A DNA stretch of 64,000 nucleotides, taken from the NCBI RefSeq assembly GCF_011383005.1, contig NZ_CP049935.1, forward strand, positions 2,232,001 to 2,296,000. Direction: 5' to 3'. The stretch is from Phycicoccus sp. HDW14. GTDB lineage: Bacteria; Actinomycetota; Actinomycetes; Actinomycetales; Dermatophilaceae. Positions 5,461 through 61,513 of the stretch are shown here, piece by piece (position 1 is the stretch's first letter; every line of letters starts with the position of its first letter). Below the pieces are notes generated by a model, which was not told where the DNA came from, searched no databases, and saw only the letters and a list, made by a program, of their open reading frames with translations. The translations under genes and the position numbers were made by a program.

Positions 5461-6071
5461 GTGACCTCGCAGGGTGGCACCACCCCGGCGGCCCGACTCC
5501 CGCGGTCGGTCAGCCGACGCACGGTCGCGGCCGGGGCCGCGTGGAGCGTGCCGGTCATCGCCGTCGGTGCCGCCGCGCCGGCCATGGCCGCCTCGCGCTG
5601 CGGCCCCTCGCCGGCTTCGCCACGCCACCCTGGACCCTGACGACGAGCGGCACCAGCGTCGCCGGCACCGGGGCCGTCACCCTGAGCGGCGGCACCTTCG
5701 AGCAGACCCTCGACGCGGCGCGCGGCTCGACGTTCGTCGCCACGGTCTCCACGTCGCTCGCCGTCGTCGCCGGGGTGGTCTACACCTTCGTCCTCAGCTT
5801 CCGGGCCTACGTCACGAACACCCAGCCGATGCGGACCTTCCTCGACGTCCAGGGCTCGCCGCTCACCGGCGCCGCCCTCGTCGACACCTCGAGCCTGGCG
5901 GTCAACTCGGGGGGCAGCTACCACGTCTCCTCGCGCACGGCGTCCTACGTCGCGACGTCGACGGGGACGGTGACGGTGGCCGTGCGCACGAGCATCAGCA
6001 CCCCGGGCAACACCTCGGCCACGAGTGGCGACGACATGCTCGTCTACCCGCTGGTCCTCAGCTGCGCCTGA
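5461..6071 (+). CDS. Small secreted protein with Tat-like leader, frame interrupted
   Basis: The GTG at 5461 opens a leader with SVSRRTVAAGAAWSVPVIAV then AAAPAMAAS, a twin-arginine-like export signal common in small actinobacterial surface proteins, with likely cleavage after AMA. The frame stops at 5640, but the mature part continues in the -1 frame from about 5607 to 6071, giving about 203 residues if one C is added to the CCCC run at 5604-5607. The mature part is a Ser/Thr/Val/Gly-rich beta-type sequence ending in PLVLSCA, with a possible disulfide between its two cysteines. No enzymatic motif is visible; an envelope or surface protein is my guess. Confidence 0.6.
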
Positions 6072-6195
6072 CCTCGAGGCGGGGTCCGCCGCCGCTGCCG
6101 ACCGGCCGCGGTGGTGGCAGAACGTGACAGGACCGCCGCCTCGGCGTCGTCCGGAGGTGCCCGCTCCGGGGGCGTCCGGGGCCTCGGGACCCCCG

Positions 6196-6201
6196 TACAC
6201 T
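6196..6201 (+). promoter_or_regulatory. -10 box of a leaderless deoC promoter
   Basis: TACACT lies six bases before the GTG start of deoC, so the transcript probably begins at the start codon. No Shine-Dalgarno-like sequence is needed or obvious. Confidence 0.55.
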
Positions 6202-6207
6202 CTCGGG

Positions 6208-7196
6208 GTGAGCACCGCGACCGACCTCGACCCCACGGCGCGCGCCCGCGACATCCTCGGGGTGTCCCGCCTGACCAACTCCGCACTCACCGGCTGGCTG
6301 CACGGCCTGCCCGGCGTGGACCAGGTCGGCTGCGAGGCCCGCGCGGCGGCCCTGTCCACCCGCTCGATCAAGACGACGAGCAAGGCGTGGGCCATCGACA
6401 CCGCCATCTCGATGATCGACCTGACGACGCTCGAGGGCGCCGACACCCCGGCAAGGTCCGCGGCCTGGCCACGCGTGCGCTCGTGCCCGACCCGAGCGAC
6501 CTCTCCACCCCCAGCCCCGCGGCAGTCTGCGTCTACGGCGACATGGTGCCGTTCGCCCGTGAGGTCATCGGCGACCGCGCCGTCAACATCGCCGCCGTCG
6601 CCACCGCGTTCCCCAGCGGCCGGGCCAGCCGGGCGGTCAAGCTCGCCGACACCCGTGACGCCGTGGCCAACGGCGCCGACGAGATCGACATGGTCATCGA
6701 CCGCGGCGCCTTCCTCGCCGGCGACTACCTCGGCGTCTTCCGCGAGATCGCCGAGACCAAGGAGGCCTGCGGCGACGCGCGCCTCAAGGTGATCATGGAG
6801 ACCGGCGAGCTCGTCACCTACGACAACGTGCGCCGCGCCTCGTGGCTCTCGATGCTCGCCGGCGGCGACTTCATCAAGACCTCCACGGGCAAGATCTCCC
6901 CTGCCGCGACCCTGCCGGTGACGCTCGTCATGCTCGAGGCCGTCCGCGACTGGCGCGACGCCACGGGCGAGCAGGTCGGCGTCAAGCCGGCCGGCGGCAT
7001 CCGCACGAGCAAGGACGCCATCAAGTTCCTCGTCACCGTGTCCGAGGTCGCGGGCGAGGAGTGGCTGACCAACGAGTGGTTCCGCTTCGGCGCCTCGAGC
7101 CTGCTCAACGACCTCGTGCTGCAGCGGCAGAAGATGACGACGGGCGCCTACTCCGGCGCCGACTACGTCGCCGACGACGCCCCCAGCGGCTACTGA
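6208..7196 (+). CDS. deoC: Deoxyribose-phosphate aldolase, frame interrupted once
   Basis: The enzyme splits 2-deoxyribose 5-phosphate into acetaldehyde and glyceraldehyde 3-phosphate. Catalytic features of the class I aldolase are present: GGDFIKTSTGK with the Schiff-base lysine, GVKPAGGIRTSKDAI with the second lysine, and ADEIDMVID. The reading frame breaks at 6446-6452, where ACCCCGGCAAG should encode Thr-Pro-Gly-Lys; one extra G restores about 329 residues, normal for the long actinobacterial DeoC. The GTG start fits the -10 box at 6196. Two aldehyde dehydrogenase-like genes follow directly, suiting oxidation of the acetaldehyde product. Confidence 0.88.
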
Positions 7197-7222
7197 CCCA
7201 CCCCGACCAGCAAGGACACCCG

Positions 7223-8669
7223 ATGCCCACCTTCGAGTACGCGCCGGCCCCGAGTCCCGGGCGGTCGTCGACATCGCGAGCAGCCACGGCCTGTTCATCG
7301 GCGGCGAGTTCGTCGAGGCCACCGGCGGCAAGCCGTTCAAGACCGTCAACCCCGCCACCGAGGAGGTCCTCTCCGAGGTCTCCGAGGCGACCGCCGACGA
7401 CGTCGACGCCGCCGTGCGCGCCGCCCGCAGCGCCTACACCCGCGTCTGGTCGCGGATGAGCGGCGCCGACCGCGGCAAGTACCTCTACCGGATCGCCCGC
7501 ATCCTCCAGGAGCGGGCCCGCGAGTTCGCCGTCCTCGAGACGCTCGACAACGGCAAGCCGATCAAGGAGAGCCGCGACGTCGACATCCCGCTCGTCGCGG
7601 CGCACTTCTTCTACCACGCGGGCTGGGCCGACAAGCTGTCGTACGCGGCGCTCGGCGACGACCCGCGGCCGGTCGGCGTCGTCGGCCAGGTCATCCCGTG
7701 GAACTTCCCGCTGCTCATGCTCGCCTGGAAGGTCGCCCCGGCCCTCGCGTGCGGCAACACGGTCGTGCTCAAGCCGGCCGAGACCACACCGCTCACCGCG
7801 CTGCTCTTCGCCGAGGTCTGCCAGCAGGCCGAGCTGCCCCGGGCGTCGTCAACATCGTCACTGGCGCGGGCGCCACCGGGCAGGCCATCGTCGACCACCC
7901 GGGCATCGACAAGCTCGCGTTCACCGGGTCGACCAACGTCGGCAAGATGATCGCCCGCTCGATCGCCGGAACGCGCAAGAAGGCCACCCTCGAGCTCGGC
8001 GGCAAGGGCGCGAACATCATCTTCGACGACGCCCCGGTCGACCAGGCCGTCGAGGGCATCGTCAACGGCATCTTCTTCAACCAGGGCCACGTGTGCTGCG
8101 CAGGCAGCCGGATCCTGGTGCAGGAGAACGTCGCCGACGAGGTCGTGCGCCGGCTGAAGCGCCGCCTCGGCACCCTGCGCGTCGGCGACCCGATGGACAA
8201 GAACACCGACGTCGGTGCCATCAACAGCCGCGCGCAGCTGACCCGCATCGAGGAGCTGACGGCCGCCGGCGCCGCCGAGGGTGCCGAGCGCTGGGACTCC
8301 GGCTGCGAGCTGCCCACCGCCGGGTTCTGGTTCCGCCCCACCGTGTTCACCGACGTCTCGCAGTCGCACCGCATCGCCCAGGAGGAGATCTTCGGGCCGG
8401 TCGTCTCGGTGCTCACGTTCCGCACCCCGGGCGAGGCGGTCGCCAAGGCGAACAACACGCCGTACGGCCTCTCGGCCGGCATCTGGACCGAGAAGGGCAG
8501 CCGCATCCTCTGGATGGCCGACCAGCTGCGCGCCGGTGTGGTGTGGGCCAACACGTTCAACAAGTTCGACCCCACCTCGCCGTTCGGCGGGTACAAGGAG
8601 TCCGGCTACGGCCGCGAGGGCGGCCGCCACGGGCTCGAGGCCTACGTGAAGACGGGAGCGCAGCAGTGA
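7223..8669 (+). CDS. NAD(P)-dependent aldehyde dehydrogenase, frame interrupted twice
   Basis: This ALDH superfamily enzyme probably oxidises acetaldehyde made by DeoC. Visible motifs are VGQVIPWNFPLLM (cofactor loop), LKPAETTP, FTGSTNVGK, the general-base Glu in LELGGKGANI, and the catalytic Cys in NQGHVCCAGSR, then EEIFGPVVSV and SPFGGYKESGYGRE at the C-terminus. The frame breaks near 7251 (GGCCCCGAG) and near 7840 (CTGCCCCGGGC); adding one base at each gives 482 residues, the family norm. ATG at 7223 follows deoC by 26 bases. Its stop overlaps the GTG of the short ALDH-like gene. Confidence 0.88.
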
Positions 8670-9574: not shown

Positions 9575-9599
9575 CCGCCCACCCCACCCCACCTCACCG

Positions 9600-9649
9600 C
9601 GAACGTGTGTGAAGACCGTCGGCATGCCGACGGTCTTCACACACGTTCG
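9600..9649. terminator. 50-base perfect palindrome after the deoC operon
   Basis: Positions 9600-9624 are the exact reverse complement of 9625-9649, centred on GCATGC. It lies 26 bases after the last ALDH-like stop and before a promoter, so a transcription terminator is likely; there is no T-tract, as is usual for this GC class. A cruciform or protein-binding site is an alternative. Confidence 0.6.
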
Positions 9650-9696
9650 GGGGACATCGGGGCGGCGCTAACCCCTCGACGGGGGTCGACCGGTTG

Positions 9697-9702
9697 TACG
9701 GT
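9697..9702 (+). promoter_or_regulatory. -10 box of leaderless promoter before the DinB/TIGR03086 gene
   Basis: TACGGT is followed by six bases and then the ATG at 9709, which fits a leaderless transcript and excludes the earlier in-frame start at 9694. Confidence 0.5.
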
Positions 9703-9708
9703 CCGAGG

Positions 9709-10236: not shown

Positions 10237-10251
10237 CGGCGCTGGCCGACT

Positions 10252-10300
10252 CCCCGGGAGGCTCGACCGGGCCCCGACCCGGCCGACCCTCCCCCCGGGG
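10252..10300. terminator. GC-rich hairpin terminator
   Basis: CCCCGGGAGG...ACCGGG (10252-10271) pairs imperfectly with CCCGGCCGACCC...CCGGGG (10278-10300), giving a long stem with a short loop. It follows the DinB-type gene and resembles the hairpin at 18370-18413 in sequence, notably the TCGAC and GGGAGG/CCCTCC parts. Confidence 0.5.
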
Positions 10301-10380
10301 CACGAGCCGGATGCGGGAGTGGTCACCCCCGCGCCCGAGGCCGGGACCGGCCCGTCGGTGGCTCAACGTAGCCTGCGCCG

Positions 10381-10785: not shown

Positions 10786-10796
10786 ACTCGCCACCC

Positions 10797-11432: not shown

Positions 11433-11441
11433 GGTGGCGCC

Positions 11442-11468: not shown

Positions 11469-12693
11469 GCGACCAGCCGTGGGTGGCACCGGGATCCCCG
11501 TCGGCGGGCCCACCACCGGGGACCACCCCGCCCGCGCCCGGCGCCGGGTCCCCGCCGCCTCCTCCGCCCGGCTCGTACCCTCCCCCGGGCTCCTACCCTC
11601 CCCCCGGCTCGTACCCTCCCCCCGGCTCGTACCCTCCGCCCGGCTCGTCCCCGCCTCCGGGTGCCCGGCCCGCGCCGTACCGCTCGATGGAGTTCCGCCC
11701 CGGCATCGTCGCCCTGCGCCCGCTGCGGATCGGTGACCTCTACGGCGGCGTGCTCAAGGCGGTGCGTGGCAACCCCGCCGCCACCATCGGCCTCGCGGCG
11801 CTGACCACCTTCGCCTTCCTCCTCCCGACGACCGCCCTCGGCGCCTGGCTCTCCGGGCAGAGCGGGCTCGGTGTCCTCGACGAGTCCGCCGCCGCCTCCG
11901 ACACCCTGCCCGACGGCGCGGGCGCCGGACTGTTCGGTGTCTACCTGCCGACCATCGGGCAGCTGCTCTCGGGGATCCTCCTCGCGGGCTTCCTCGCCCA
12001 GGTCGTCGGCCAGGCGGTGCTCGGCCGGAAGGTCTCGATGTCCGAGGTGTGGCGCGCGACCCGCGGGCGGCTGCTCGCGATGGTCGGCGCCGTCCTCGTG
12101 ACGATCGTCGCCTTCCTCCTCGTCCTCGCCGTGACCGTCGGCGGGCCCATCGCGATCGGCGTCGCCACGGTCGGCACGGACATGTCGGACATCGGGCTGG
12201 TCATCCTCCTCGTGTTCGTCAGCGTCGTCGCGACCGTCCTGGCCCTGGCCTTCCTCGGCACGAAGTGGGCCTTCGCCACCCCGGCCATCGTCCTCGAACG
12301 GGTCGGGGTCTTCCGGGGCTGGGTCGCTCGTGGGGGCTCGTCGGCAGCCCCCTGCGCGCCCCCTTCTGGCGGATCTTCGGGCTCCGGCTGCTCACGGCCC
12401 TCATCGTCGGCACGGCGTCCTCCGTCATCACCCTGCCGATCACGCTGCTCCTCGTCGTCATCGGGGTCGTGGCCGTCGGTGACGGCGCCGACGGTGCGAC
12501 GCCCCTCGTCGTCCAGACGGTCAGCACGGGCATCGCCGGCCTCATCACCGGCGCCCTGACCACCCCGTTCAGCGCCGGGGTCGACGCCCTCCTCTACGTC
12601 GACGCGCGCATCCGCTCCGAGGGCCTCGACGTGCGGCTCATCCAGGCCACGCAGGGAGCCGCACCGCCGCCCTGGCCGCTCACCACGCCGTGA
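11465..12693 (+). CDS. Proline-rich glycerophosphoryl-diesterase-type membrane protein, frame interrupted
   Basis: Residues 1-70 are a Pro/Gly/Ser/Tyr-rich cytoplasmic tail with five PPPGSY-like repeats; after FRPGIVALRPLRIGDLYGGV come about six membrane helices, the pattern of the membrane protein that heads actinobacterial MoxR/DUF58 clusters. The frame breaks at about 12315-12320 (CGGGGCTGGG); one extra base restores LGRSWGLVGSPLRAPFWRIF and a total of 409 residues ending at 12693. The stop overlaps the next GTG. Function is unknown; a role in envelope assembly with the MoxR ATPase is an inference from context. Confidence 0.75.
11561..11662 (+). repeat. 18-base coding tandem repeat (PPPGSY)
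   Basis: About five near-identical 18-base units encode PPPGSY within the proline-rich tail of the membrane protein at 11465. Units differ mainly in C-run wobble positions. Such tracts can expand or contract by slippage and are also hard to sequence correctly. Confidence 0.75.
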
Positions 12694-13340: not shown

Positions 13341-14567
13341 GCGCCTCCACCTCCAGCCCTCCTTCCACCGCCCCGGCGCCGGTCGCGGCGGCCGGCGTCG
13401 ACGGCCGCCGGGCCCTGCGCCGCGGCCGCACCGTCGTCGTGTGGGTCCTCCTGCTCGTGGTCGGAGGGGCGGTCCTCGCCCTCGCGGCCGGCAGCCCCCG
13501 CCCGCGGACTACCTGCACCCCGACGGCACCGGCCAGTCGGGCACCAAGGCGCTCGTCGAGGTGCTGCGCGACCAGGGCATCGACGTCGACGTCGTGAGCA
13601 CCTCCCAGGACGCCGTCGACGCCGCGGGCGACGGCCGACCGGCCACCGTCGTCGTCGGCAACTCCGACCTGCTCACCGACTCCGCCGCCCGGCGCCTGCT
13701 CGAGGGGACGCGCGGCGCCGACCGTGTCGTGTTCCTCGACGGCGCCCCCGGCGTGCTGCTGAGTCTCGACCTCGGGCTCTCGGTCGGCCTCCCGGCCGAG
13801 CGGCCCGCGGCCGCCGACTGCTCGCTGCCGTGGGTCGCGGGCGGCGACCGGGTCACGCACCTGTCGTGGGCCATCGTCCCGAGCGACGAGGCCCGTCGCG
13901 ACGGTGCCCGGGGCTGCTTCCCCACCGGCTCCGACGACCCCGCGCTGCCGTCCGGCTTCGCGGCCGTCGAGGTGCCGGCCGGGCCCGACCACGCCGCCGT
14001 CACGGTCGTCGGCATGCCGGACGCCGCGACCAACCGCTTCGTCACCGAGGCCGACAACGCCGGGCTCGTCGTCCGCCTGCTCGGCGGCTCACCGCATCTC
14101 GTCTGGTACCACCCGGACGACGAGGACGCCACGGCCAACCCCTCGACCACCGACGCCTCGGTGTGGCCGGAGTGGGTCGGGCCCGGGATGGTGGTCCTCG
14201 CGCTGGCCTTCGTCGCCTTCGCCCTCGCGCGCGGCCGCCGACTCGGCCGACTGGTCCCCGAGCCGCTTCCCGTCGTCGTGCGCGCCGCCGAGACCACCGA
14301 GAGCCGCGCCGAGCTGTACCGCGCGTCCGGCGACCGCGACCGCGCGGCCCGGGTCCTGCGGCTGGCGACCACGGGGCGGCTGGCCACCCGGCTCGGGATG
14401 TCCGCCGGCGCCCCGGCCGACGAGGTCGCACCCGTCGCCGCCGCGGCCGCCGGCCTCCCACCCGCCGACGTCGACCGGCTCCTGCGCGGGCCGGCCCCCG
14501 CCGACGAGCAGGGTCTCGTCACCCTCGCCCAGCAGCTCGCCCACCTCGAGGAGAAGGTCCGTACGTC

Positions 14568-14571: not shown

Positions 14572-15591
<1,020 letters not shown>

Positions 15592-17544: not shown

Positions 17545-18349
17545 CCCGGCCGTTCCGGTTCGGCGTCGTCGCGCCGGTGACCAACGGCCTCGCCGCCTGG
17601 CGCGACGACGTGCGCCGGGCCGCCGACGCGGGGTTCGGCACCGTTCTCGTGCCCGACGTGCCCTCGTGGCAGCCGGCCCCTGCGCCCCTGCTGGCCACCG
17701 CGGCGTCGATCGCCGACGTGCGCGTCGGCACCTGGGTGTCGGCGACACCGCTGCGCCCCGCGTGGGCCCTGGCCTGGGAGGCGCACTCGCTGTCGGTGGT
17801 CACCGGGGGGCGCTTCGAGCTGGGCATCGGCACGGGGCGCCCGGGCATCGAGGACGAGCTGCGCGAGCGCGGGATGGACCCGGTCTCCCCCGCGAGCGCC
17901 TCGACCGGGTGCGCGAGACGGTCGAGGAGCTGCGCCGTCTCGACGGTGCGGACCGGCACACGCCGGTGGTCATGGCGGTGAGCGGCCCGCGGGCCCGGGC
18001 GCTGGCGGTCGAGGTCGCCGACACGGTGACGCTGGCCGCGATGCCCGGTGACGGCCGCGAGTCGATGGCCGCGACGGCCCGCGGCATCCTCGCCGGACGC
18101 GACGTCGAGCTCGCCCAGCACGTCCCCGTCGTGGGCGACCTCGTGGCCCCGTTCATGGCCTCGGCGCGCGACACCGACATCGCCGCCCTCCGGGCCGAGG
18201 ACTCGCTGCTCGTGCTCCCCGCCGACCCGGCCGCGGCCGTCGAGGAGCTCCGGCGCCGCCGCGAGGAGATCGGCTACTCGTACGTCGTCGTCGGCTCGCA
18301 CGCCGTCGACGTCATGGCGCCCGTCGTCGCCGAGCTCGCCGGTCGGTAG
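17541..18349 (+). CDS. LLM-class (luciferase-like) F420/FMN-dependent oxidoreductase, frame interrupted
   Basis: A luciferase-like monooxygenase fold is indicated by FRFGVVAPV, AADAGFGTVLVPD, LLATAASIADVRVGTWVSATPLRPA, and RFELGIGTGRPGIEDELRERGM, which bind flavin or F420. The frame breaks at 17886-17891 in TCCCCCGCGAG; one extra C gives PVSPRERLDRVRETVEELRRL and a total of 269 residues, somewhat shorter than many members (about 300). The start overlaps the reductase-like gene. Substrate is unknown; the family includes coenzyme F420-dependent reductases common in this phylum. Confidence 0.82.
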
Positions 18350-18445: not shown

Positions 18446-19440
18446 TCAGGCGGCGACGGGGAGGGTGTCGCCGGCGTCCCGGGCGGCCACGTCACCGGTC
18501 GCGCCGCGGGCCACGGCGGCCCGGCCGACGACGAACACGTAGAGCAGGAACGCGGTCTCGGCGAGCACCCCGATGGAGATGCGTGCCCACGTCGGCAGCC
18601 CCGACGGCGTCACGAAGCCCTCGATGACCCCGCTGACGAAGAGCACGACGACCAGCCCCATGGCGATGCCGACCGCCGTTCGGGCCTCCCGGGCGAGGGA
18701 CTGCCCCCGCGGCAGCGGCCCCGGGCTGATCCACGACCAGCAGATGCGCAGCCCCACCGCGCCGGCGACGAAGATGGCCGTCAGTTCGAGGAGCCCGTGC
18801 GGGAGGATCAGCCCGAAGAAGAGCGCGGTGCGGTCGTGGTAGGCCATCAGCGCCCCGGCGACCCCGACGTTGAGCACGTTCTGGGCGAGGATGACCACGA
18901 CCGGCAGCCCGAGGATCCCCAGGGCGATGACCTGCGCCGACACCCACGCGTTGTTCGTCCACACGAGCCCGGTGAAGTCGAGGTGCGCGTACTCGGAGTA
19001 GTACTGCGCGAAGTCGGTGCCCACGAAGGCGTTGATCTCCTCGGGGGACATCCGGCTGGTCCAGACCTGGGGTGCCGGTACGCGTACCAGCCGACGAGGA
19101 AGGCGATGGCGACGTTGGCCAGCGCCGTGCTCACCCACCACCAGCGCAGCCGGTAGAGCGCCGCCGGGAAGGTGGTCGTGAAGAACCCGAGCAGCGCGGC
19201 CCACGTCCCCGTCCGCCGCCCGGCCGTGGCCATCCGCGCGCGCGCCACGAGCGAGGAGAGGTGGGCGACGACGGCCGGGTCCGGGCTGGAGGAACGCACG
19301 ACCGACAGGTGCGTGGAGACGCGCTGGTAGAGGTCGAGCAGCTCGTCGGCCTCGGCCCCGCTGTGCCGGCGCTGGCCCACGAGGGTCTCCAGCCGGTTCC
19401 ACTGCGCCTGGTGGGCGGCCACGTACGCGTCGAGGTCCAC
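18446..19440 (-). CDS. Stage II sporulation protein M-like (DUF95) membrane protein, frame interrupted
   Basis: A cytoplasmic N-terminal part (MDLDAYVAAHQAQWNRLE..., YQRVSTHLSVVRSSSPD) leads into about six membrane helices with the family motif LPHGLLELTAIFVAGAVGLRI. The frame breaks at 19069-19072, where CACCCCAGG (minus strand) needs one extra base to join AYRHP to QVWTSRMSPEEINAFVG; the restored protein has 331 residues. SpoIIM-like proteins in non-sporulating actinobacteria pair with RDD proteins and MoxR clusters; function is unknown. A TAGGCT box six bases before the GTG at 19440 suggests a leaderless transcript divergent from the RDD gene. Confidence 0.85.
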
Positions 19441-20416: not shown

Positions 20417-21503
20417 TCAGGCGCCGAGCGCCGCGTACCCGGGCTTGACGACGTGCTCGATGAGCTCGAGCCGCTCCTCGAAGGGCAGGAACGCCGACTT
20501 CATCGCGTTGATGGTCACCCAGCGCAGGTCGGCCAGCGTCCAGCCGGCCTCGTCGACGAGCAGCTGCATCTCGCGCGACATCGACGTGCCCGACATCAGC
20601 CGGTTGTCGGTGTTGACGGTGACCCGGAACCGCAGGTTCTTGAGCAGGGTGATCGGGTGTGCCGCAACGGACTCGGCGGCGCCAGTCTGGATGTTCGAGC
20701 TCGGGCACATCTCGAGCGGGATGCGCCGGTCGCGCACGTAGTCGGCGAGCCGGCCGAGCACGGCCACCCCGTCGTCACCCACCTGCACGTCGTCGACGAT
20801 GCGCACGCCGTGGCCGAGCCGGTCGGCACCGCACCACTGGATGGCCTCCCAGATCGAGGGCAGCCCGAAGGCCTCACCGGCGTGGATCGTGAAGTGCGCG
20901 TTCTCGCGACGCAGGTACTCGAACGCGTCGAGGTGGCGGGTGGGCGGGAAGCCGGCCTCGGCCCCGGCGATGTCGAAGCCACCGACGCCGCGGTCGCGGT
21001 AGGCGACGGCCAGCTCGGCGATCTCGCGCGAGCGGGCCGCGTGCCGCATCGCGGTGAGCAGGGCCCGGACCCGGATGGGCGTGCCGGCGGCGGCCGCCTC
21101 GGCCTCGCCCTCCCGCAACCCGGCGAGGACGGCCTCGACGACCCGCTCGAGCGGCAGCCCGCCCTCGATGTGCAGCTCGGGGCGAAGCGCGACTCGGCGT
21201 AGACGACGCCGTCGGCGGCGAGGTCGAGGGCGCACTCGCGCGCGACGCGGGTCAGCTGCTCCTCGGTCTGCATCACCGCGACGGTGTGCGAGAACGTCTC
21301 GAGGTAGCGCACGAGCGACCCGGAGTCGGCGGCGTCCCGGAACCAGGCGCCGAGGGCAGCGGGGTCGGTGGTCGGCAGGCCGTCGTAGCCGGAGGCCTCG
21401 GCGAGCTCGACGACCGTCGCGGGGCGCAGGCCGCCGTCGAGGTGGTCGTGCAGGAGGGCCTTCGGCGCGCGGCGGACGACCTCGGCGGTCGGGGTGGCGG
21501 ACA

Positions 21504-21504: not shown

Positions 21505-22792
<1,288 letters not shown>

Positions 22793-22850: not shown

Positions 22851-23269
22851 CTACGGGCGGCGGGTCTCGAGGTCCTCGGGACCGAAGGCCTGGGGCAGCA
22901 CCTCGCGCATCGTGAGGATGCCCTCGGGCGTCTGCAGCAAGGTGTCAGGAGTTCCGTTCTCCCACAGCAGCTGTCGGCACCGGCCGCACGGCATCAGGGT
23001 GTCTCCGCGGCCGTCGACGCACCACACGGCGACGAGCCGCCCGCCACCCGTGGCGTGCAGGGTGGAGACCATGCCGCACTCGGCGCAGAGGGTGACCCCG
23101 TAGCCGGCGTTCTCGACGTTGCAGCCCGCCACGACCCGACCGTCGTCGACGAGACCGGCGACCCCCACGGGGAAGCGGCTGTACGGGCAGTACGCGAGCG
23201 TGGTCATCCGCACCGCCTCGGCGCGCAGGACCTCCCAGTCGACCTCGGGGCGGGGACGGCGCTGGTCAC
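22851..23269 (-). CDS. cdd: Cytidine deaminase, frame interrupted at residue ~7
   Basis: The enzyme converts (deoxy)cytidine to (deoxy)uridine. Zinc site and catalysis: [16 protein letters not shown] with the HAE-type CAE triad and [11 protein letters not shown] for the two other cysteines; [10 protein letters not shown] at the N-terminus binds substrate. The GTG at 23269 overlaps the M20 stop; a break at 23247-23250 (minus strand GCCCCGAGG) separates VTSAVPAP from [14 protein letters not shown], and one extra base gives 139 residues. It precedes deoA by 58 bases, forming a pyrimidine nucleoside salvage run. Confidence 0.92.
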
Positions 23270-29327: not shown

Positions 29328-31552
<2,225 letters not shown>

Positions 31553-35989: not shown

Positions 35990-37122
<1,133 letters not shown>

Positions 37123-37287: not shown

Positions 37288-39164
37288 ATGAGTCGCCAGT
37301 CGCGCGGCCGGGGCACCGTCCTGGCCCTGGGGTGGGGTGTCGTCGACGCCGCCATCTGGTTCGTCGCCGTGGTCGTGGCCACGTGGCTGCGCTACCAGTA
37401 CGACCCCGACCTCACCTTCGTCCCGTCGACCTACCTCGCCGCGGGCGGCGCGGCCGGAGCCCAGCTGCTCGTCGGGCTCGTCCTCGGGCCGTACACCCGG
37501 GGCACGCACCGGGGGTCGTTCGAGGAGGTCCGCTCCCTCGCCACGACGACGGCCCTGGTCACCTTCGCGCTCTTCGGGGCGGCGGTGGCCGTCGAGGCGG
37601 CCTCCGAGGGGGGCCGCATCCTCGTCCCCGGCACCGTGCCGGCCATCGGCGGACTCACCGCCTACGCCGTCCAGCTCTCGACCCGGCTGCTGTTCCGGAC
37701 CCACTCCCGCCGCCGCGCCGCGCGCCGGCCGGACGCCACCCGGGTCATCGTCGTCGGTGCCGGCTCGGCCGCACGCCTGCTCGTGCGCAACCTGCTCCAC
37801 GACGAGCGCACCTCCTACCTCCCCGTCGCCCTGCTCGACGACGACCGCGCCAAGCGCCGCAGCCGCATCGAGGGCCTCCGGGTGCGGGGGACGCGGGAGG
37901 ACATGGCCCGCGTGGCCGACGCCACCGGCGCCGAGCACGTGGTCATCGCGATCCCGAGCGCGACGTCGCAGACCATCCGCGAGCTGAGCGCCACCGCCGA
38001 GGCCGCCGGGCTGCGCCCGCTCGTCGTCCCCTCGTTGAGCCACGTCATCGGCCGCTCCCTCACCGCCTCCGACATCCGCGACATCGACGTCGCCGACCTG
38101 CTCGGCCGCCGACCGGTCCGGCTCGACGACACCGCCATCAGCGAGCAGCTCAACCACAAGGTGGTGCTGGTCACCGGGGCCGGGGGGTCGATCGGCGCCG
38201 AGCTGTGCCGCCAGATCGCCCGCTTCTCCCCGAGCGCCTCGTCCTCCTCGACCGCGACGAGTCCGCGCTGCACGCCGTCCAGCTCGACCTCGACGGCGAG
38301 GGGCTGCTGCAGAACGAGAACATCGTCCTCGCCGACATCCGCGACCTGTCGACGCTGCGACGGCGCTTCCGGGAGCACCGCCCCGACATCGTGTTCCACG
38401 CGGCCGCGCTCAAGCACCTGCCGCTCCTCGAGCGCTTCCCCGCCGAGGCCTGGCAGACCAACGTCCTCGGCACCCTCAACGTCCTCACGGCCGCCGAGGA
38501 GGTCGGCGTCGGGACCTTCGTCAACGTCTCGACCGACAAGGCCGCCGACCCCACGTCCGTCCTCGGCTACAGCAAGCGGGTCGCCGAGCGCCTGACCGCC
38601 GGATTCGCCGAGCGGGGCGACGGGCGCTACCTCAGCGTCCGCTTCGGGAACGTGCTCGGCTCGCGGGGCTCGGTCGTCCCGGCGTTCACCGCCCAGATCC
38701 GCCGCGGCGGGCCGGTGACCATCACGCACCCCGACGTGCGCCGCTACTTCATGCTCATCCCCGAGGCCTGCCAGCTCGTCATGCAGGCGGCCACGATGGA
38801 GGCGGCCGGCGAGGTCCTCGTCCTCGACATGGGCGAGCAGGTCAAGATCGTCGACCTCGCCCGCACCCTCATCTCGATGTCGGGGCAGCCCGACGTCGAG
38901 ATCGCGTTCACCGGGCTGCGTCCCGGCGAGAAGCTCGCCGAGGACCTGTTCGGCCAGGCCGACGACCACCGCGTCACCACGCACGAGCTGATCACCGCCA
39001 CCGACGTGCCCCCGCTGCCGGCGTCGGTCGTGGGGACCACCCACCCCGAGCCCCACGAGATGCACGACGCGCTGACGAGGTTCGCCCTCGCGGGGCGGTC
39101 CGCTCAGGCGGGGTCGACCCCGGGCAGCCGGACGCTGCGGATGGCCTCCAGCACCTCGGCGTGA
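37288..39164 (+). CDS. Polysaccharide biosynthesis dehydratase, CapD/FlaA1 type, frame interrupted
   Basis: An N-terminal part with four membrane helices (residues about 10-125) and a Rossmann domain (TRVIVVGAGSAARLLVRNLL) precede the UDP-sugar 4,6-dehydratase domain: VTGAGGSIGAELCRQIARF, VFHAAALKHLPLLE, NVSTDKAADPTSVLGYSKR and RFGNVLGSRGSVVPAF. This family makes UDP-4-keto-6-deoxy sugars from UDP-GlcNAc for capsules and O-antigens. The frame breaks at 38228-38232 (TCCCCGAG); one extra base restores RFSPERLVLLDRDES and 625 residues. ATG at 37288 has a GGGAGAGGG ribosome site; a TACAGT box at 37204 implies a ~70-base leader. Its last 61 bases overlap the convergent glycosyltransferase. Confidence 0.88.
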
Positions 39165-42355: not shown

Positions 42356-43883
42356 CGCGCCACCCGCAGCGGGCGGTCGGCACGGCGGGGTGCGGCAACG
42401 GGCTGGACCCACCGGCGGACGGCGAGCGCCCCGAGGAGGACGAGCCCGATACCGGCCAGGCTCGAGGCGGTGAAGGCCTCGACGACGAACTGGCTGTAGC
42501 CGCTGCGGGGGGCGAGCACGACCTCGCGGGCCAGCAGGAGGCAGAGGAGGCGGACCTCCCACGAGCGGTGCAGGCCCACGGTCAGCTGCCAGAGCACGAC
42601 CCCGAGCACGATGCTGCCGACGAGCACGCCGACGTAGCCCGCGTCGGCCCACAGCTCGGCGACGTAGGAGGAGCCGATGCCGCGGCCCTTGAGGTACTCA
42701 CCGCCGAGCACGCGGTAGGAGATGAGCTGCCCGAACAGGCCGCTCTGCTCGGCCCGCTCGACGCTCTGGCCGGAGAGCGCGCCGTCGCCGAGACCGACGA
42801 GGCCCGGGAGCCGCCGTCCGAGCAGGTCGACGAGGTGCCCGAGCGAGTACAGGTGGTCGGGGACCTGGGCCCGGTAGACGTACCCGTACCCGATCACCTC
42901 GAGGCTCGAGCTCTGGGCGTAGACGGTGTCCCAGAGCGGCCCGAACAGGCCCTCCGCCTGCCGGGCCTGGAGGGTCCGCGTGCGCCCGACGAGGGCCAGC
43001 AGGCCCAGCACCACCGGGATGGCCCCGGCGGCCACCCAGAGCAGCCGCCGCCCGACCCACCGACGGCCCGACGGGTCGGTCGCCGAGCGGTAGGAGAGGT
43101 AGACGAGGACCACGGTCACCGAGAGCACGAGCTCGGTGCGCTGCCCGGAGAACAGGGCCACCGAGGCGGCCGCGAGGTAGGCCCGGAGGCCCACCACACC
43201 GCCCGGGGGCGCGGGTCGGTGGCGAGGTAGCACAGGAAGACGGCCGTCGCCGACTGGCCGAGCAGGCGGACCGGCAGCGGCAGGCCGGAGGCGAAGGTCG
43301 TGTAGAGGTCGAAGTACGACGCGTGGCGCACGAAGAGCGCGGCCTCGACCCCGAGGGCCACGTGGCAGACCAGGGCCACCCCGAGCAGCACGACGGACGC
43401 GACCCGGATGCTCGGCACGATGGCGTCGCTGCGGTACGGCCGGGGGGTCGCCCGGCTGCCCCGCCCCCGAGCGAACGGGAGCATCCACCACCCGACCTGG
43501 AGCCCGACGAGGGAGAGTGCGAGACAGGCGAACACGTGGGTGTAGACGTCGTCGCGGTTGAAGGGCATCACGAACTGGTCGGTGCTCCCCGGCGGGTAGC
43601 CGACCACCTCGAGCAGGGGCCGGGCGAGGAGGAAGACGACGAAGGCCGCGAGGAAGGCCAGCCCCAGGGCCGAGACCCGGGGGGCCACGAGGAGGTGGCG
43701 CAGCGCCGACAGGGCGAGCAGGAAGCACGCGACGAGCACCGGCATCGGCTGCGTGGTCGCCCACCCGCCGGCGAGCAGTGCGACACCGGCGACGAAGGAC
43801 CAGGTGCCGAGCTGCGGGTGGGTCAGGGCGCTCCGCAGGCGGGCCGCCACTCCCCCGGCCTCGGGCTCGCGGGCAGGCGTCAT
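42352..43883 (-). CDS. O-antigen/exopolysaccharide polymerase-like membrane protein (Wzy), frame interrupted
   Basis: About 11 membrane helices and a large extracytoplasmic loop rich in Tyr, Gly and Leu (VYAQSSSLEVIGYGYVYRAQVPDHLYSLGHLVDLLGRR in parts) are typical of Wzy/O-antigen ligase-like polymerases, which share little sequence. The frame breaks at 43204-43209 (minus strand CGCGCCCCCGGGCGG); one extra base joins ATDPRP to GGVVGLRAYLAAASVALFSGQRTELV, giving 510 residues. It lies between a glycosyltransferase and the flippase, which supports the call. Confidence 0.75.
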
Positions 43884-45009
43884 CGTCGGGCCGCCGACCG
43901 CAGCAGGCCCTCGAGGGCGGTCCAGAGGCGGGGACGGTCGTAGCGGGCGAGCGCCCGCTCGCGCGCGGCCATGCCCATCCGGGTGCGCAGGGCGCCGTCG
44001 TCGACCAGCCGCTCGAGCGCCGCGGCGAGCGCCCCGGCGTCGCGGCGTGGCACGACGAGCCCGGTGGTGCCGTCGTCGACGACCTCGCGGCCGCCGGTGC
44101 AGTCGGTGACCACGGTCGGCACCCCGGCGGCCGCGGCCTCGATGACGACGAGCGGCAGCCCCTCGCGGTAGCTCGGCAGGACGCAGACGTCGGTGTCGGC
44201 CCACAGCCGCTCGAGGTCCTCGACGTGCCCCAGCAGGTGGGTCCGGGGCAGGGCCTCGAGGGCGGCGAGCAGCGCAGGGCCCTCGGGGTCGGGCCCGTCG
44301 ACGCGGCCGGCCACGACGAGGTGGGCCCCGGGTCGGCTCGGGGCGAGGCGGGTCCAGGCGCGCACGAGCTCGCGGATGCCCTTGTCGCCGGTCAGGCGAC
44401 CGGCGAAGGTGACGAGGACGTCGTCGGCGGCCAGGCCCAGCTCGTGCCGGTAGCGGGGGCGGCCACCTCGGGCCCGACGCCGTTGCAGGACCCGTCGGCG
44501 AGGACGACGACCCGACCGCGACGGACGATCCGGCGGTCCTCGAGGATCCGGCGCAGCTCGAAGCCGTCGGCGACGACGACGTCGGCGAGCCGGCAGGTCG
44601 CCGCCTCGAGCAGGGTGAGCACCCGGCGCGCGAGGCCGGAGGCCCCCTCGAGCCGCAGGCCGTGGACCACGTAGACCGATGGGACGCGCAGGACGCGGCA
44701 GGCCGCCACCCCGAGGAGGCTGGCCTTCGGCGAGCCCCACAGCGTGACGTCCGGGCGCAGCCGGCGCAGCAGCCCGAACAGGCTCCACGCAGCGCCCAGG
44801 TCCCGCAGCACCGAGGGGTTGCGCTCGAGCGGCACCGGGTGGAAAACGATCCCGTCCCCGGCGGCGAAGCGCGCGACGTCGGCCTCGTCGCTGCAGGTCA
44901 GGGCCACGTCCCAGCCGCGCTCGCGGAGGAAGGGCGCCTGGCCCCGGATGAACCCCTGCGCCGAGACGCCGGACGTCATCCCGTAGAGGACGAGGGGGCG
45001 GGCCGCCAT
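43880..45009 (-). CDS. Glycosyltransferase family 4 (GT-B), frame interrupted
   Basis: A GT-B glycosyltransferase: the N-terminal half has [56 protein letters not shown]; the C-terminal half VTFAGRLTGDKGIRELVRAW, LLGHVEDLERLWADTDVCVLPSYREGLPLVVIEAAAAGVPTVV with the conserved glutamates. The frame breaks at 44455-44459 (minus strand GCCGCCCCCGCTACC); one extra C restores VAAPRYRHELGL and 376 residues. ATG overlaps the sugar transferase stop (TGATG). Probably adds the second sugar of the repeat unit. Confidence 0.87.
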
Positions 45010-45634
45010 CAGAACGACCCCCGGCCGTGCAGCGCGACGACGAGGGTCCGGACGAGGATGCGGACGTCGAGCGCCAGTCCGGCGTTCTCGACGTACCAGC
45101 GGTCGGCGGCCATCTTCTGGCCGTGGTCGTGCGAGGACCGGCCGGTGACCTGCGCCCAGCCAGTGAGCCCCGGCTTGACGAGCAGCCGGCGCGCCTGGTC
45201 CGCGCTGTAGTGGCGGACGATCGGGAGGATCTCGGGGCGCGGCCCCACGAGGCTCATGTCGCCGCGCAGGACGTTGACCAGCTGGGGCAGCTCGTCGAGG
45301 CTCGTGCGCCGGAGCACCGCGCCGACCCGGGTCACCCGGGCCTGGGCGCTGGCCGCCGTCTTGAAGACGAAGTCGTCGGGCACGCCGTCGGCCCAGGTGC
45401 TGGTGTCGACCTCTCCGGCGAACTCGCCCGCGACCGACATGGTGCGGAACTTGAGCATCGGGAAGGGGGTGCCGCCCGTCCCGCCCGCGGCTGGCGGAAG
45501 AAGACCGGACCGCCGTCGTCGAGCTTGACGGCCACCGCGACGGCGGCGACGAGCGGGGAGGTGAGCACGAGCCCGACCGCCGCGGCCGCCACGTCGAGGC
45601 CGCGCTTAGCGGCGTGGTACGCGGTGCCGGACAC
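45009..45634 (-). CDS. Initiating sugar transferase (undecaprenyl-phosphate hexosyl-1-P transferase), frame interrupted
   Basis: This bacterial sugar transferase starts repeat-unit synthesis by linking a sugar phosphate to undecaprenyl phosphate. One membrane-associated helix ([22 protein letters not shown]) is followed by the family signature: [53 protein letters not shown] and [13 protein letters not shown]. The frame breaks between 45475 and 45487 (minus strand GCGGGACGG); one extra G gives 208 residues, the PglC/WcaJ-core size without the long N-terminal domain. GTG at 45634 overlaps the end of the FolD-like gene by 29 bases. Confidence 0.9.
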
Positions 45635-46589: not shown

Positions 46590-46714
46590 GGAGCCCCTCA
46601 CACCCTTCCCTCGGTCCACCCCCGCGGTACGACCTCGGAATCATAGTCGAGCGGGGAGGGGTGACGTGACGGCACGCACCGGGCGCCGGGCTGTCCCCGG
46701 GACCGCACCTCCGC

Positions 46715-49876
<3,162 letters not shown>

Positions 49877-53601: not shown

Positions 53602-53605
53602 GCCG

Positions 53606-54520: not shown

Positions 54521-55251
54521 CTCGATCTTGGCCAGCCCCACGACGGCGACGAGGGAGAGCAGGAGCAGCACGAGCGCGGTCCAGGCCTCCCGGTCGGTGG
54601 GTGGGTCGGCGTGGTCGTCGGCGGCGAGCACCTCGCCCTCGCCCGTGACCGGCAGGAAGAAGTCGCGGTGCCGGACGGTCTGGGTGACGACGAACGCGGC
54701 GTAGAGCACCACGGAGGCGACGGCCGCGAAGGCCAGCTGCCCACCGGTGAACTCGGGTCCGGCCTGCCCGGTGGTGAAGGTCGGCAGGACGAGGCAGGTG
54801 GCGGCGAGCGCGGCGACCGTGGCCAGTGCGCCACCGGTGCCCTCGGCGTTGAAGTTCGCGAACCCGAAGCGCCGGGCGCCGAGCAGCAGGGACAGGCCCA
54901 TGATCCCGTTGACGGTGATCATCACGGCGGCGAAGACGGTGTCGCGGGCCAGGGTCGCCGCCTCGTCGCCGCCGCTGAGCATCAGCGTGACGATGAGCGA
55001 GACCTCGATGACGGTGACCGCGACGGCGAGCACGAGCGACCCGAACGGCTCACCGACCCGGTGCGCGACGACCTCGGCGTGGTGCACGGCGGCGAGCACC
55101 GCGAGCGCCAGGAGCAGGGCCACGACGAGGACGAGCACGGGCCCGAGGTCGCGCCCCCACGTCGCCGCGAGGGCCACGAGACCGACGACGGGGCGAACGT
55201 CCAGGTGCGGGCGAGGACCGGATGCGTTCCGGCAGCGGCCACCTCAGCCAC
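54140..55251 (-). CDS. Calcium/proton antiporter (Cax/ChaA family), frame interrupted near the N-terminus
   Basis: A Ca2+:H+ exchanger with about 11 helices in two halves. The alpha repeats include [20 protein letters not shown] and [46 protein letters not shown], each with the ion-binding Glu. The frame breaks at 55190-55193 (minus strand TTCGCCCCGTCG); one extra base joins [14 protein letters not shown] to [17 protein letters not shown], giving 370 residues from GTG 55251. That start overlaps the folD stop by 8 bases, so it is translated with folD. Convergent with the GNAT gene. Confidence 0.87.
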
Positions 55252-56124
55252 TTCCCGGGTGCAGACCGGCGGCGCGCTCGGCGGCCTCGACGACGTTGGA
55301 CAGCAGCATCGCGCGGGTCATCGGCCCGACCCCGCCGGGGTTGGGGCTGACGAAGCCCGCGACGTCCCACACGTCGTCGGCGACGTCGCCGGCCACCCGG
55401 GCCTTGCCGGACGCGTCGTCGACGAGGCGGGAGACCCCGACGTCGAGGACGGCCGCACCGGGCTTGACCATGTCGGCGGTGACGATGCCGGGGACGCCGG
55501 CCGCGGCCACGACGATGTCGGCCTGGCGGACCTCGGCCGCGAGGTCGCGGGTCCCGGTGTGGCAGAGGGTGACCGTGGCGTTCTCGGAGCGTCGGGTGAG
55601 GATGAGCCCCAGCGGGCGGCCCACCGTGATGCCGCGCCCGACGACGACGACCTTGGCGCCGGCGATCGGCACGTCGTACCGGCGCAGCAGCTCGACGCAG
55701 CCGACGGGGGTGCACGGCAACGGGGCGGGCTCGCCGAGGACGAGCCAGCCGAGGTTCGTGGGGTGCAGGCCGTCGACGTCCTTGGCGGGGTCGACGGCAG
55801 ACAGGATCGCGTTCTCGTCGAGGCCGGTGGGCTGCTGGACGATGAAGCCGGTGCACGCGGGGTCCTCGTTGAGCGCGCGGACGACGGCGAGCACCTCCTC
55901 GAGGGTCGACCCGAGGGCAGGTCGTGGCGCATCGAGTGGATGCCGATCTCGGCGCAGTCCTTGTGCTTGGCGCCGACGTACCACCGGCTTCCCGGGTCGT
56001 CGCCGACGAGCACCGTCCCGAGGCCCGGCACCACACCGCGTTCGGCGAGGGCGGCCACGCGGGCGCGCAGCTCGTCCTTGATCGTCGCGAGGATCGCCTT
56101 GCCGTCGAGAGTCGTGGCCGTCAC
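55244..56124 (-). CDS. folD: Methylenetetrahydrofolate dehydrogenase/cyclohydrolase, frame interrupted
   Basis: Bifunctional one-carbon enzyme interconverting methylene- and formyl-tetrahydrofolate. [27 protein letters not shown] with catalytic Tyr and Lys, [61 protein letters not shown] and [14 protein letters not shown] are standard. The frame breaks at 55915-55917 (minus strand CTGCCCTCGGG); one extra base gives [21 protein letters not shown] and 293 residues. GTG at 56124 with AAGAAT six bases before it. It is the housekeeping folD, in contrast to the folD-like gene at 45606. Confidence 0.93.
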
Positions 56125-56327
56125 GCCACCATTCTTCCATCGGTCGGGGCGGCCCCCGACGACGTCCGGCGGGGCAGCCCCTCTGCTCCACCGCCCCGCC
56201 GGCGCCCGGCACCCACCCTCGCGGGCGGCACCGTGCAGGGGGTTCGGACCCGGGCGGCCCGCGGATGGGTCCCCACGCCGGGGGCCTGACCTCCCACGAT
56301 GGCGCTGGAGTGACTAGCGTGACCCCT

Positions 56328-56677
56328 GTGGCGAAGTACGCGGTGAACGAGGCGGGCGCGGCCCACGTCCGCGCGCTCATCGACGCCCACCAGTACGTGC
56401 TCGACAGCGACTGGGGCGAGGTCCAGCCCGACGCGGCGGCCCAGAACGCCTACCTCGAGCGGCACGGCTGGGACGCGTACGCCGCCTGGCACCTCGGGCT
56501 CACCGAGGGCCGGGCGAGGAGACCAAGGCCCGGTACGCGTTCGTCGCCGGTGACTTCCGCCGGGTCCACCGCAGCGCCCTCATCGCCTGCGTCTACCGGG
56601 CGTCGGAGTGGCGCCACAAGGAGGTCGAGCTCGCCGCGCACGACCTCCTCCAGCACCTCGACGCGACGAGCGCGTGA
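56328..56677 (+). CDS. Small conserved hypothetical protein, frame interrupted
   Basis: I do not recognise a named family. The frame opens at GTG 56328, seven bases after TAGCGT (leaderless). It encodes [34 protein letters not shown], an aromatic-rich [17 protein letters not shown], and after a break near 56506-56514 (GAGGGCCGGGCGAGG, one base missing) [40 protein letters not shown], 116 residues in total. It looks like a small soluble helical protein. Its stop overlaps the GTG of the membrane acyltransferase-like gene. Confidence 0.65.
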
Positions 56678-59191: not shown

Positions 59192-60678
59192 CGGGTGGCT
59201 CCCAGGGCGGCGACGGCGTGGCGGGCGGCAGCGGCGTTGGACAGGAACACGGAGGCGCCGGCGGCGGCGAGGGCGTCGGCGCAACGGGCGCGGCCCTGAG
59301 GGTCGGCATCGGTGCCGGAGAGCGACACCACGACCGGCAACGCACGGCCGTCCGCGTGGGCGGTGGCGCGGGCCGCCCGCACGGCGTCGGCGAGCTCGCC
59401 GGCGGGGTCGGGGTGGGCGCCGTGGCCGAGGACGAGGTCCACCAGCAGCACGCCGCACGTGGGGTCGGCGGCCTCGGTGGCGATGCGCGCCGTGCGCAGG
59501 GTCGGGTCGATCATCGGGTGGGCCCGGCCCCGGGTCAGCTCGTCGGCTCCGAAGTCGACGACGACGTGGCCGGGGTCGGTGAGGTCGGGGCCGAGTGCGG
59601 GCTCGTGGCCGAGGTTGGACGCGATGGCCCCGAGGTCGTCGGCGGCGACGAGGAGGGCCTCCTCGGCGAGGGTGCCTCCGCAGAAGAGACCGCGCAGGGA
59701 CGGCCCGCGGGTGAGGCCGGGGTCGTCGGGGTCGGCCTGTGTCGCAGCCCAGTCCGGCACGGTGACGCCCTCGGCGGCCAGCGCCTGCTCGAGCGCTGCG
59801 GTGAGGTCGGGACGGCCGGCGCCGAGGGTGGCCCAGTGGACGCGCAGGCCGAGGGCGTCGGCCTCCGCGCGGACGTCGTCGAGCACGGCGTCGTCCGGCG
59901 GCTTGGACACGACGAGCACCCACTCGGTGGCGGCGTCGGCGGCCAGGGCGCGCAGGGCCTGCCGGGTGGAACGGCCAGCGACGGCGGCCTTGAGGTCGCG
60001 CCCGCCGACGCCGAGGCAGTGGCTGACGCCCACACCGGCCGCGTCGAGGAGGCACATCGCCTGCTGCGCACCGGTTCCCGAGGCGGCGACGATGCCGACG
60101 GGGCCGGGGACGACGACGTTGGCGAAGCCCAGGGCGACACCGCCGACGAGCGCGGTGCCGCAGTCGGGACCCATGACGAGCACGTCGGCGGCGGCGGCGG
60201 CCTCCTTGAGCGCCACCTCGTCCTCGACGGAGACGTTGTCGGAGAACAGCATCACCGAGGCGCCGGCGGCGATGGCGTCGTAGGTCTCGGTGACGGCGTG
60301 GGCGCCCGGGACGGAGACGAGGGCGAGCCCGGCACCGGATCGACGGACCGCCGAGCCGAGCGTGCCCGGCGGCACCTCGTCGTCGGCACCGGTTCCGCCG
60401 GTCGGGGCCGACAGCGCGCGCAGGGCGTCGTCGACGGCGGTGACCCCGGTGGCGACGGCCTCCTCGTCGACGGTCCGCAGGGCGACGACGAGGTCGTTCG
60501 GGCCGGCGTCGCCGGGTACCTCGAACCCCATGCCGCGCAGCACCTCGACGTTGAGCTCGGTGGCCATCGCGACCTGGGCCGCCTCGACCCCGGCGGCACC
60601 GGCGACCGTGCGCGACACCTGCAACAGGCTCACCGAGTCGTGGTACGCGCCGCGGCGCAGCTCGACGTGGACGGTCAT
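59188..60678 (-). CDS. allF: FdrA-family protein, oxamate transcarbamylase subunit AllF type
   Basis: This 496-residue protein is FdrA-like, with CoA-ligase (SucD/SucC-like) folds: VELRRGAYHDSVSLLQVSR at the start, MATELNVEVLRGMGFEVPGDAGPNDLVVALR, FSDNVSVEDEVALKEAA, VMGPDCGTALVGGVALGFANVV, GIVAASGTGAQQAMCLLDAAGVGVSHCLGVGGRDL and a C-terminal VVDFGADELTRGRAHPMIDPTLR. The E. coli homologue FdrA was renamed AllF. It sits between allH and allG with 4-base overlaps at both ends, as expected for subunits of one complex. Confidence 0.85.
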   Translation of the reverse strand: MTVHVELRRGAYHDSVSLLQVSRTVAGAAGVEAAQVAMATELNVEVLRGMGFEVPGDAGPNDLVVALRTVDEEAVATGVTAVDDALRALSAPTGGTGADDEVPPGTLGSAVRRSGAGLALVSVPGAHAVTETYDAIAAGASVMLFSDNVSVEDEVALKEAAAAADVLVMGPDCGTALVGGVALGFANVVVPGPVGIVAASGTGAQQAMCLLDAAGVGVSHCLGVGGRDLKAAVAGRSTRQALRALAADAATEWVLVVSKPPDDAVLDDVRAEADALGLRVHWATLGAGRPDLTAALEQALAAEGVTVPDWAATQADPDDPGLTRGPSLRGLFCGGTLAEEALLVAADDLGAIASNLGHEPALGPDLTDPGHVVVDFGADELTRGRAHPMIDPTLRTARIATEAADPTCGVLLVDLVLGHGAHPDPAGELADAVRAARATAHADGRALPVVVSLSGTDADPQGRARCADALAAAGASVFLSNAAAARHAVAALGATR

Positions 60679-61513
60679 GCGGCGGTCCTCCCGGTGGCGG
60701 CGAGCGGGTCGAGGGCGGCGCCGAGGCCGGCGACGAGGTCGGCCCCGGAGGTGTGGCCGACGGCGAGCACCGGCGGGAGCGCGGCGCGGGTGGCGGCGAG
60801 GTCACCGGCCGCGACGGCGTCGACGAGCGCGACCACCTCGGGGGTGGCCCACCCGTCGAGGGCCGCGGCGAGCAGGGACGCGGAGACGGCCGTCGTGGCG
60901 TGCAGCCGGGCCCGGACGGCCGCGGCCAGCGGGTCGGGGCGACCCCGGGGCGGGACGTGCCCGAGCGCCCGACGCACGAGCAGTGCACCGGCGAGGGCGT
61001 CGTCGCCGCTCGGCGTGAGTCCGGGCCCCCGCCCGACGAGGCGCCCGACCGCCTGCTCGGGTGCGGTGGCCGTCAGGGCCTCGACGACGGCCGGCGCGAG
61101 CCAGTCGGGCGCGGCGGGGCATCCCCCAGCGAGCGCCGACCGCACCGGACCGGTCGCCGCGTGCGCGACGGCACCCCGGGCCACGCGGGCCGGGCGCCAG
61201 GTCCGCACGCCGCGCACGGTGAGGGCCGGGAACGCGAGGGTCCCCGCCCCGACGACGACCACGTCGCCGGCCACGACGCCGAGCTCGAGCCGGTCGCAGG
61301 GCTCCCCCAGCCGGACGGCCCCCGGCAGCGCGAGGGCGTCGTGGCCGAGCACGGGCAGGACCCGGTCGGCGGCCGCGAGGTAGGCGCCCGCGCGGTGCAC
61401 CCCCAGGACGACGAGCGGCCGGCGCGGGCAGCGGACGAGGTCGGCGGTGAGGGGCGAGAGGGCCCCGGGAGCACGAGCCGACCGCGCGAGGGGGCCTGCG
61501 CGGGCGAGGGCAT
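60675..61513 (-). CDS. allH: DUF2877 protein, oxamate transcarbamylase subunit AllH (YlbF) type, frame interrupted
   Basis: DUF2877 is shown by VRGVRTWRPARVARG, the phosphate-type loop VGRGPGLTPSGDDALAGALLVRRALG and LLAAALDGWATPEVVALVDAVAAGD with a C-terminal VLAVGHTSGADLVAGLG. ATG 61513 is six bases after TAGCGT on the minus strand (leaderless position), but its frame joins the body only if one base is added near 61461-61469 (GGGGCCC); this gives LVLPGALSPLTADLVRCP and 279 residues. A GTG at 61535 in the body frame is the alternative start. First gene of the all operon, divergent from pucR. Confidence 0.78.

What the first reader, a model, noticed from the sequence alone, without database searches (positions are those of the whole stretch)
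5600..61470. Systematic single-base losses in G/C runs break 22 conserved genes
Conserved genes are interrupted at about 5605, 6450, 7251, 7840, 12317, 13497, 14625, 17889, 19070, 21180, 21556, 23248, 30908, 36353, 38230, 43206, 44457, 45480, 48517, 55191, 55916, 56510 and 61465. In every case the break is in or beside a run of three to five C or G, on either strand, and one added base restores a protein of family-typical length with conserved motifs in register. All are losses, none a gain. That bias, and the hit on housekeeping genes (icd, folD, deoA, add, cysC), argues for a base-calling or assembly artefact rather than pseudogenes.
Basis: partly seen in the sequence, partly recalled or inferred. 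Interest (0 to 1): 0.75.

Follow-up and report, generated by a model that had tools for sequence, protein, structure and literature searches.

The report
Lost letters are a sequencing artefact
The broken genes are almost certainly intact in the living bacterium: the genome assembly drops one letter in some runs of G or C, which scrambles the reading of otherwise normal genes.

Summary
The window lies in a 4.07-Mb single-contig assembly, 70-78% GC per 2 kb, of the genus that holds Phycicoccus avicenniae. A strict frame scan of five regions gave 20 losses and 0 gains in 138 kb here, against 0 losses and 1 gain in 373 kb of three relatives. All 20 gaps lie within 3 bases of a G/C run of three or more; chance gives 30%. 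The losses also hit rpoB, rpsL, murE, ftsZ, atpG and two G runs of the 23S rRNA, so decay or programmed frameshifting cannot explain the set. A PacBio Streptomyces assembly of 73% GC kept 205 indels, nearly all in G or C homopolymers (PMC4832174). Platform unknown; no reads were seen.

The parts
5598..5610 (+). frame loss in a small gene of no known family
   Evidence: one-base loss against G005 only; no NCBIfam match of the relative's frame
6443..6453 (+). frame loss in deoC (deoxyribose-phosphate aldolase)
   Evidence: loss against G005, G006, G007; TIGR00126 in the relative
7244..7254 (+). frame loss near the start of an aldehyde dehydrogenase gene
   Evidence: loss against G005, G006, G007
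7834..7844 (+). second frame loss in the same aldehyde dehydrogenase gene
   Evidence: Pfam Aldedh match in two frames
12310..12320 (+). frame loss in a membrane protein gene (weak DUF7847 match below its cut-off)
13490..13502 (+). frame loss in a DUF4350 gene
14600..14642 (+). net frame loss in the N-terminal linker of a MoxR-type AAA ATPase gene; exact place unclear
   Evidence: net shift against G005; AAA_3 in the downstream piece
17880..17896 (+). net frame loss in a luciferase-like monooxygenase gene
   Evidence: net shift against G005 only; first piece matches only the N part of PF00296, the relative matches on in one frame
19064..19074 (-). frame loss in a SpoIIM-family gene
21174..21184 (-). 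frame loss in add (adenosine deaminase)
21552..21562 (-). frame loss near the end of deoA (thymidine phosphorylase)
23240..23262 (-). net frame loss at the start of cdd (cytidine deaminase)
   Evidence: net shift among larger indels
30903..30914 (+). frame loss in galK (galactokinase)
36345..36358 (+). frame loss in the N-terminal part of the gene with the APS kinase (CysC) domain
38223..38234 (+). frame loss in a Polysacc_synt_2 gene
   Evidence: G005, G007
43198..43214 (-). probable frame loss in an O-antigen polymerase (Wzy) gene
   Evidence: profile split between two frames; no related DNA
44450..44466 (-). probable frame loss in a glycosyltransferase gene
   Evidence: N and C domains in different frames; no related DNA
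45468..45490 (-). probable frame loss in a Bac_transf sugar transferase gene
   Evidence: frame starts at profile position 51; weakest of the 23
48511..48521 (+). frame loss in icd (monomeric isocitrate dehydrogenase)
   Evidence: PF03971 positions 1-582 of 734 in the upstream piece
55185..55195 (-). frame loss in a Na/Ca exchanger-family gene
   Evidence: loss against G005 only
55905..55919 (-). frame loss in folD
56504..56516 (+). frame loss in a small gene of no known family
   Evidence: no Pfam match of the relative's frame
61460..61472 (-). frame loss in an AllH-family gene

Best explanation
The breaks are errors of the assembly, not of the organism. In the consensus a minority of G or C homopolymers of about 4 to 6 bases is written one base too short, and wherever that falls in a gene the reading frame is lost. 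Shown here: losses only, at G/C runs, on both strands, in five separate regions, in essential genes and in 23S rRNA, and nearly absent from relatives. Inferred: that the data were long reads (PacBio CLR or nanopore) without accurate short-read polishing, where undercounting homopolymers is the usual residual error.
For: Strict scan: 20 losses, 0 gains in 138,384 bases here; 0 losses, 1 gain in 373,440 bases of G005, G006, G007 (P about 7e-11 for the split). Gaps at G/C runs: 20 of 20 within 3 bases of a run of 3 or more, random 30%. Essential genes hit: rpoB, rpsL, murE, ftsZ, an FtsW/RodA-family gene, atpG. 23S rRNA one G short in two G runs shared by G005 and G006. Two large families: 4 of 25 genes split between frames here, 0 of 80 in three relatives (my count). 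Completeness 92.72% for a single contig, while the other two single-contig genomes of the genus have 99 and 100. Precedent: PMC4832174.
Against: No reads, platform or coverage known. Most comparable runs are intact (53 of 57 of length 5). 16S rRNA shows no indel against G005. The rate is higher in the window than in the four other regions (10 in 39.4 kb against 10 in 99.0 kb, P 0.03 uncorrected), unexplained. Run lengths also differ now and then between the relatives: G006 to G007, runs of 3 to 7, 3 of 2189 shorter and 3 longer, against 9 of 1427 shorter and 2 longer from G005 to this genome, runs of 3 to 6. A/T runs of 4 or more are too few to test base specificity.
Confidence: 0.97

Rival explanations
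1. Real pseudogenes: the strain is losing genes through relaxed selection or a mutator that deletes bases in homopolymers.
For: Single-base losses in runs are a common real mutation; the two sides of each strict break are still 55% identical or more, which fits recent breaks as well as artefact. A few dispensable genes could truly be broken.
Against: rpoB, rpsL, murE, ftsZ, atpG and the 23S rRNA are hit too; only one 16S gene was found in this genome. No gains among 20 strict events.
Confidence: 0.02
2. Programmed frameshifting or transcriptional slippage at G/C runs restores the proteins.
For: Slippage at homopolymers is known in bacteria (recalled, no call).
Against: Relatives carry the same genes in one frame. 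Most equal runs are not sites of a frame change. It cannot explain losses in rRNA.
Confidence: 0.005
3. The pattern comes from my alignments: long chance frames and uncertain gene starts at 75% GC.
For: My first scans gave many false events, in relatives too, and the looser scan still had 7/7, 3/4 and 2/1 confirmed losses/gains in G005, G006, G007.
Against: With matched strict rules the relatives give 1 event in 373 kb and this genome 20 in 138 kb; nucleotide alignments show the missing base directly.
Confidence: 0.005

Closest known systems
Residual G/C-homopolymer indels in a PacBio HGAP/Quiver assembly of a GC-rich actinomycete: Streptomyces albus SM254 (PMC4832174, whole text)
   Same: GC-rich actinomycete chromosome in one piece; remaining errors are indels, nearly all in G or C homopolymers, which break frames
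   Different: There 205 indels in 7.17 Mb were found and corrected with Illumina reads; here the extrapolated number is higher (about 400 to 1000 in 4.07 Mb) and evidently uncorrected; the platform here is unknown
Gene-fragmenting deletion errors in long-read drafts as described for Kastor (PMC12007338, 12 of 43 passages)
   Same: Deletions follow homopolymers, most after runs of four to five; drafts score as partly incomplete through fragmented genes
   Different: There, in a 59% GC genome, A/T runs led; here G/C runs, in a genome where long A/T runs are rare

Membership tests
Homopolymer-undercount artefact of an assembly | Single-base losses, not gains | tested here: met
   20 losses, 0 gains in the strict scan; looser scan 30 and 3 confirmed, 4 and 9 unconfirmed
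Homopolymer-undercount artefact of an assembly | Located in homopolymers beyond chance, more often in longer runs | tested here: met
   loss in 3 of 6024, 3 of 1172, 1 of 197, 4 of 57 and 1 of 1 runs of length 2 to 6
Homopolymer-undercount artefact of an assembly | Blind to function: essential genes and stable RNA hit as well | tested here: met
Homopolymer-undercount artefact of an assembly | Raw or independent reads show the longer run | not testable with these tools
   no reads on hand
Pseudogenes of a decaying genome | Losses spare essential genes and rRNA | tested here: not met
   rpoB, rpsL, murE, ftsZ, atpG and 23S rRNA affected
Pseudogenes of a decaying genome | Indels of both signs and drift behind the break | tested here: not met
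   no gains; both sides of each strict event at least 55% identical by the rule, mostly 80% or more
Programmed ribosomal frameshifting | Frame change at the same place conserved among relatives | tested here: not met
   relatives read through in one frame at the strict sites

The most novel reading that the evidence does not exclude
The shorter runs are real in the DNA, and this bacterium tolerates hundreds of frame losses, even in rpoB and rpsL, through efficient slippage of RNA polymerase or ribosome at short G/C runs, together with an altered 23S rRNA.
Probability: 0.005. Interest if true: 0.95.

Novelty: not a real feature. Interest (0 to 1): 0.08.

Why it matters
As biology it is ordinary: the genes are most likely intact. 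As data quality it matters: a single-contig genome in a reference collection carries, by extrapolation of the strict rate, some 400 to 1000 lost bases, which distort gene content, pseudogene counts and completeness (92.72%). Anyone mining it would meet false pseudogenes and false fused or antisense frames.

Tried and rejected
Plain nucleotide alignment of genes gave 59 to 127 frame-changing gaps in the seven pairs whose totals were shown, controls included (two totals were cut from the output), because small compensating gaps are common at this divergence; rejected as a count. Frame-aware alignment with stop-to-stop references flagged events in every genome (losses/gains 24/2 here, 6/11, 9/9 and 13/10 in G005, G006, G007), many of them upstream of gene starts by my reading; rejected. 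Trimmed references were better but left events near starts in the relatives.

Run-length spectra: runs of six are fewer here (18.5 per 100 kb against 31, 49 and 45.5), in line with shortening but not proof. A motif beyond the run was not established: CTCGGGG/CCCCGAG stands near 3 of 20 sites (random 0.9%), few and chosen after seeing the sites. A search for relatives of a glycosyltransferase piece gave matches in 17 of 98 genomes, this one included, the best other at 34% identity, not used further. A paper search for this genome gave nothing that I could tie to it; that call used a strain label which I recalled and which no call supports.

Full report
What the window is. Bases 2,232,001-2,296,000 of a 4,071,256-base single-contig assembly, completeness 92.72%, 70-78% GC per 2-kb step. 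G001 and G004 are listed in its genus, and their match coordinates equal those of records of Phycicoccus avicenniae BSK3Z-2 and Phycicoccus sp. CSK15P-2, so I place it in the genus of those strains. The closest genome, G005, is 98% identical over the intact part of deoA.

Method. I fetched the matching regions of G005, G006 and G007 and wrote a protein-to-DNA aligner that allows steps of two or four bases at a cost. In the counted scans the references were protein segments conserved between relatives, with high GC at third codon positions; this assembly was not a reference. Each relative was also treated as a target in the same way, as a control. Frame changes were only measured; no base was put back.

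Nucleotide alignment shows a one-base loss at 16 of 23 sites and at one more, 5605, against G005 only. Three sites (14625, 17889, 23248) lie among larger indels whose net shift equals one lost base modulo 3; at 14625 the looser scan also put a gain 74 bases upstream, before the gene start. Three sites (43206, 44457, 45480) lie in a polysaccharide locus for which one search found no related DNA. Their domains run from one frame into another at 43206 and 44457, and at 45480 a sugar transferase frame begins at profile position 51; for the last I did not show where the missing part lies. None was refuted. At several sites the relatives have another base inside what is a run here; a third-position substitution plus a loss in the longer run explains these (inference).

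Counts. The strict scan over five regions (window, rpoB, ftsZ, atp, nusA) gives 20 losses and no gain in 138,384 covered bases here, and no loss and one gain in 373,440 bases of the three relatives; the split has P about 7e-11, and 20:0 has P about 2e-6 in a sign test. The looser scan gave 30 losses and 3 gains confirmed by majority of relatives, plus 4 losses and 9 gains unconfirmed, in 133,652 bases here; in G005, G006 and G007 it gave 7/7, 3/4 and 2/1 confirmed and 1/9, 2/2 and 1/3 unconfirmed losses/gains in 119,423, 120,778 and 124,432 bases. By distance to the alignment end most control events sit near gene starts, which is why the strict rules were made. The window has 10 events in 39.4 kb, the other four regions 10 in 99.0 kb (P 0.03, uncorrected); this is unexplained.

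Context. All 20 strict gaps lie within three bases of a G/C run of three or more, against 30% of 20,000 random coding positions; 19 of 20 touch such a run (random 16.5%) and 16 of 20 touch a run of four or more (random 5%). Where six bases on both sides equal those of G005, runs are one base shorter here in 3 of 6024 (length 2), 3 of 1172 (3), 1 of 197 (4), 4 of 57 (5) and 1 of 1 (6), and one longer in 1, 1, 1, 0 and 0. Between G006 and G007 differences occur too: for lengths 3 to 7, 3 of 2189 shorter and 3 longer in one direction, 3 of 2187 shorter and 1 longer in the other. A/T runs of four or more occur once in the G005 comparison, so base specificity cannot be tested.

Damage blind to function. 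Outside the window the 10 strict losses fall in rpoB, rpsL, murE, ftsZ, truB and a sugar transferase gene, an FtsW/RodA/SpoVE-family gene, a TgpA/transglutaminase gene, atpG, and one gene in the atp region that I did not name. In the atpG family search this genome alone of five has the gene in two pieces. The 23S rRNA lacks one G in each of two G runs shared by G005 and G006; the other indels there are compensating pairs in variable stretches. The 16S has no indel against G005. One 16S gene was found in this genome. That a cell cannot live with such lesions rests on general knowledge of these genes.

Genome-wide check. In the AMP-binding and aldehyde dehydrogenase families I counted genes whose matches lie in two frames: 4 of 25 here, 0 of 80 in G005, G006 and G009 together (my reading of the rows; one of the four rests on a weak second piece of 21.7 bits; Fisher P 0.003). 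One of the four is the window's own gene.

Literature. Streptomyces albus SM254 (73.34% GC), assembled from PacBio reads at 262x and polished with Quiver, still had 205 indels, nearly all in G or C homopolymers, corrected with Illumina reads (PMC4832174, whole text). The Kastor authors report that deletion errors in a long-read draft follow homopolymers, most after four to five equal bases (PMC12007338, passages). They came from the searches; other papers listed there were seen as listings only.

Verdict. Added here: it is spread over the genome, reaches essential genes and rRNA, hits a minority of runs, and by inference mostly shortened runs of about five. Unknown: the platform, and whether a few dispensable genes are truly broken as well.

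Noticed in passing
L132:1120-4235 (minus strand), 23S rRNA of this genome, outside the window: Two G runs are one base shorter than in G005 and G006; used as evidence.
   Followed up: yes
window 57788-62909: Genes with AllG, AllH and CoA-ligase (Ligase_CoA) domains beside a PucR-type regulator, which looks like an oxamate carbamoyltransferase (purine catabolism) cluster.
   Followed up: no
window about 39000-46600: A polysaccharide locus (Wzy polymerase, glycosyltransferases, sugar transferase) with no good DNA match in the matching regions of G005-G007 (best a 58% stretch in G007): it looks like a variable island.
   Followed up: partly
window as a whole against four other regions of the genome: Strict frame losses are about 2.5 times denser in the window (10 in 39.4 kb against 10 in 99.0 kb); cause unknown.
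   Followed up: no
L130:15226-17907 (minus strand) and the atp region of this genome (L118): A polyprenyl glycosylphosphotransferase-type sugar transferase gene lies near the atp operon and is also frame-broken in this assembly.
   Followed up: no
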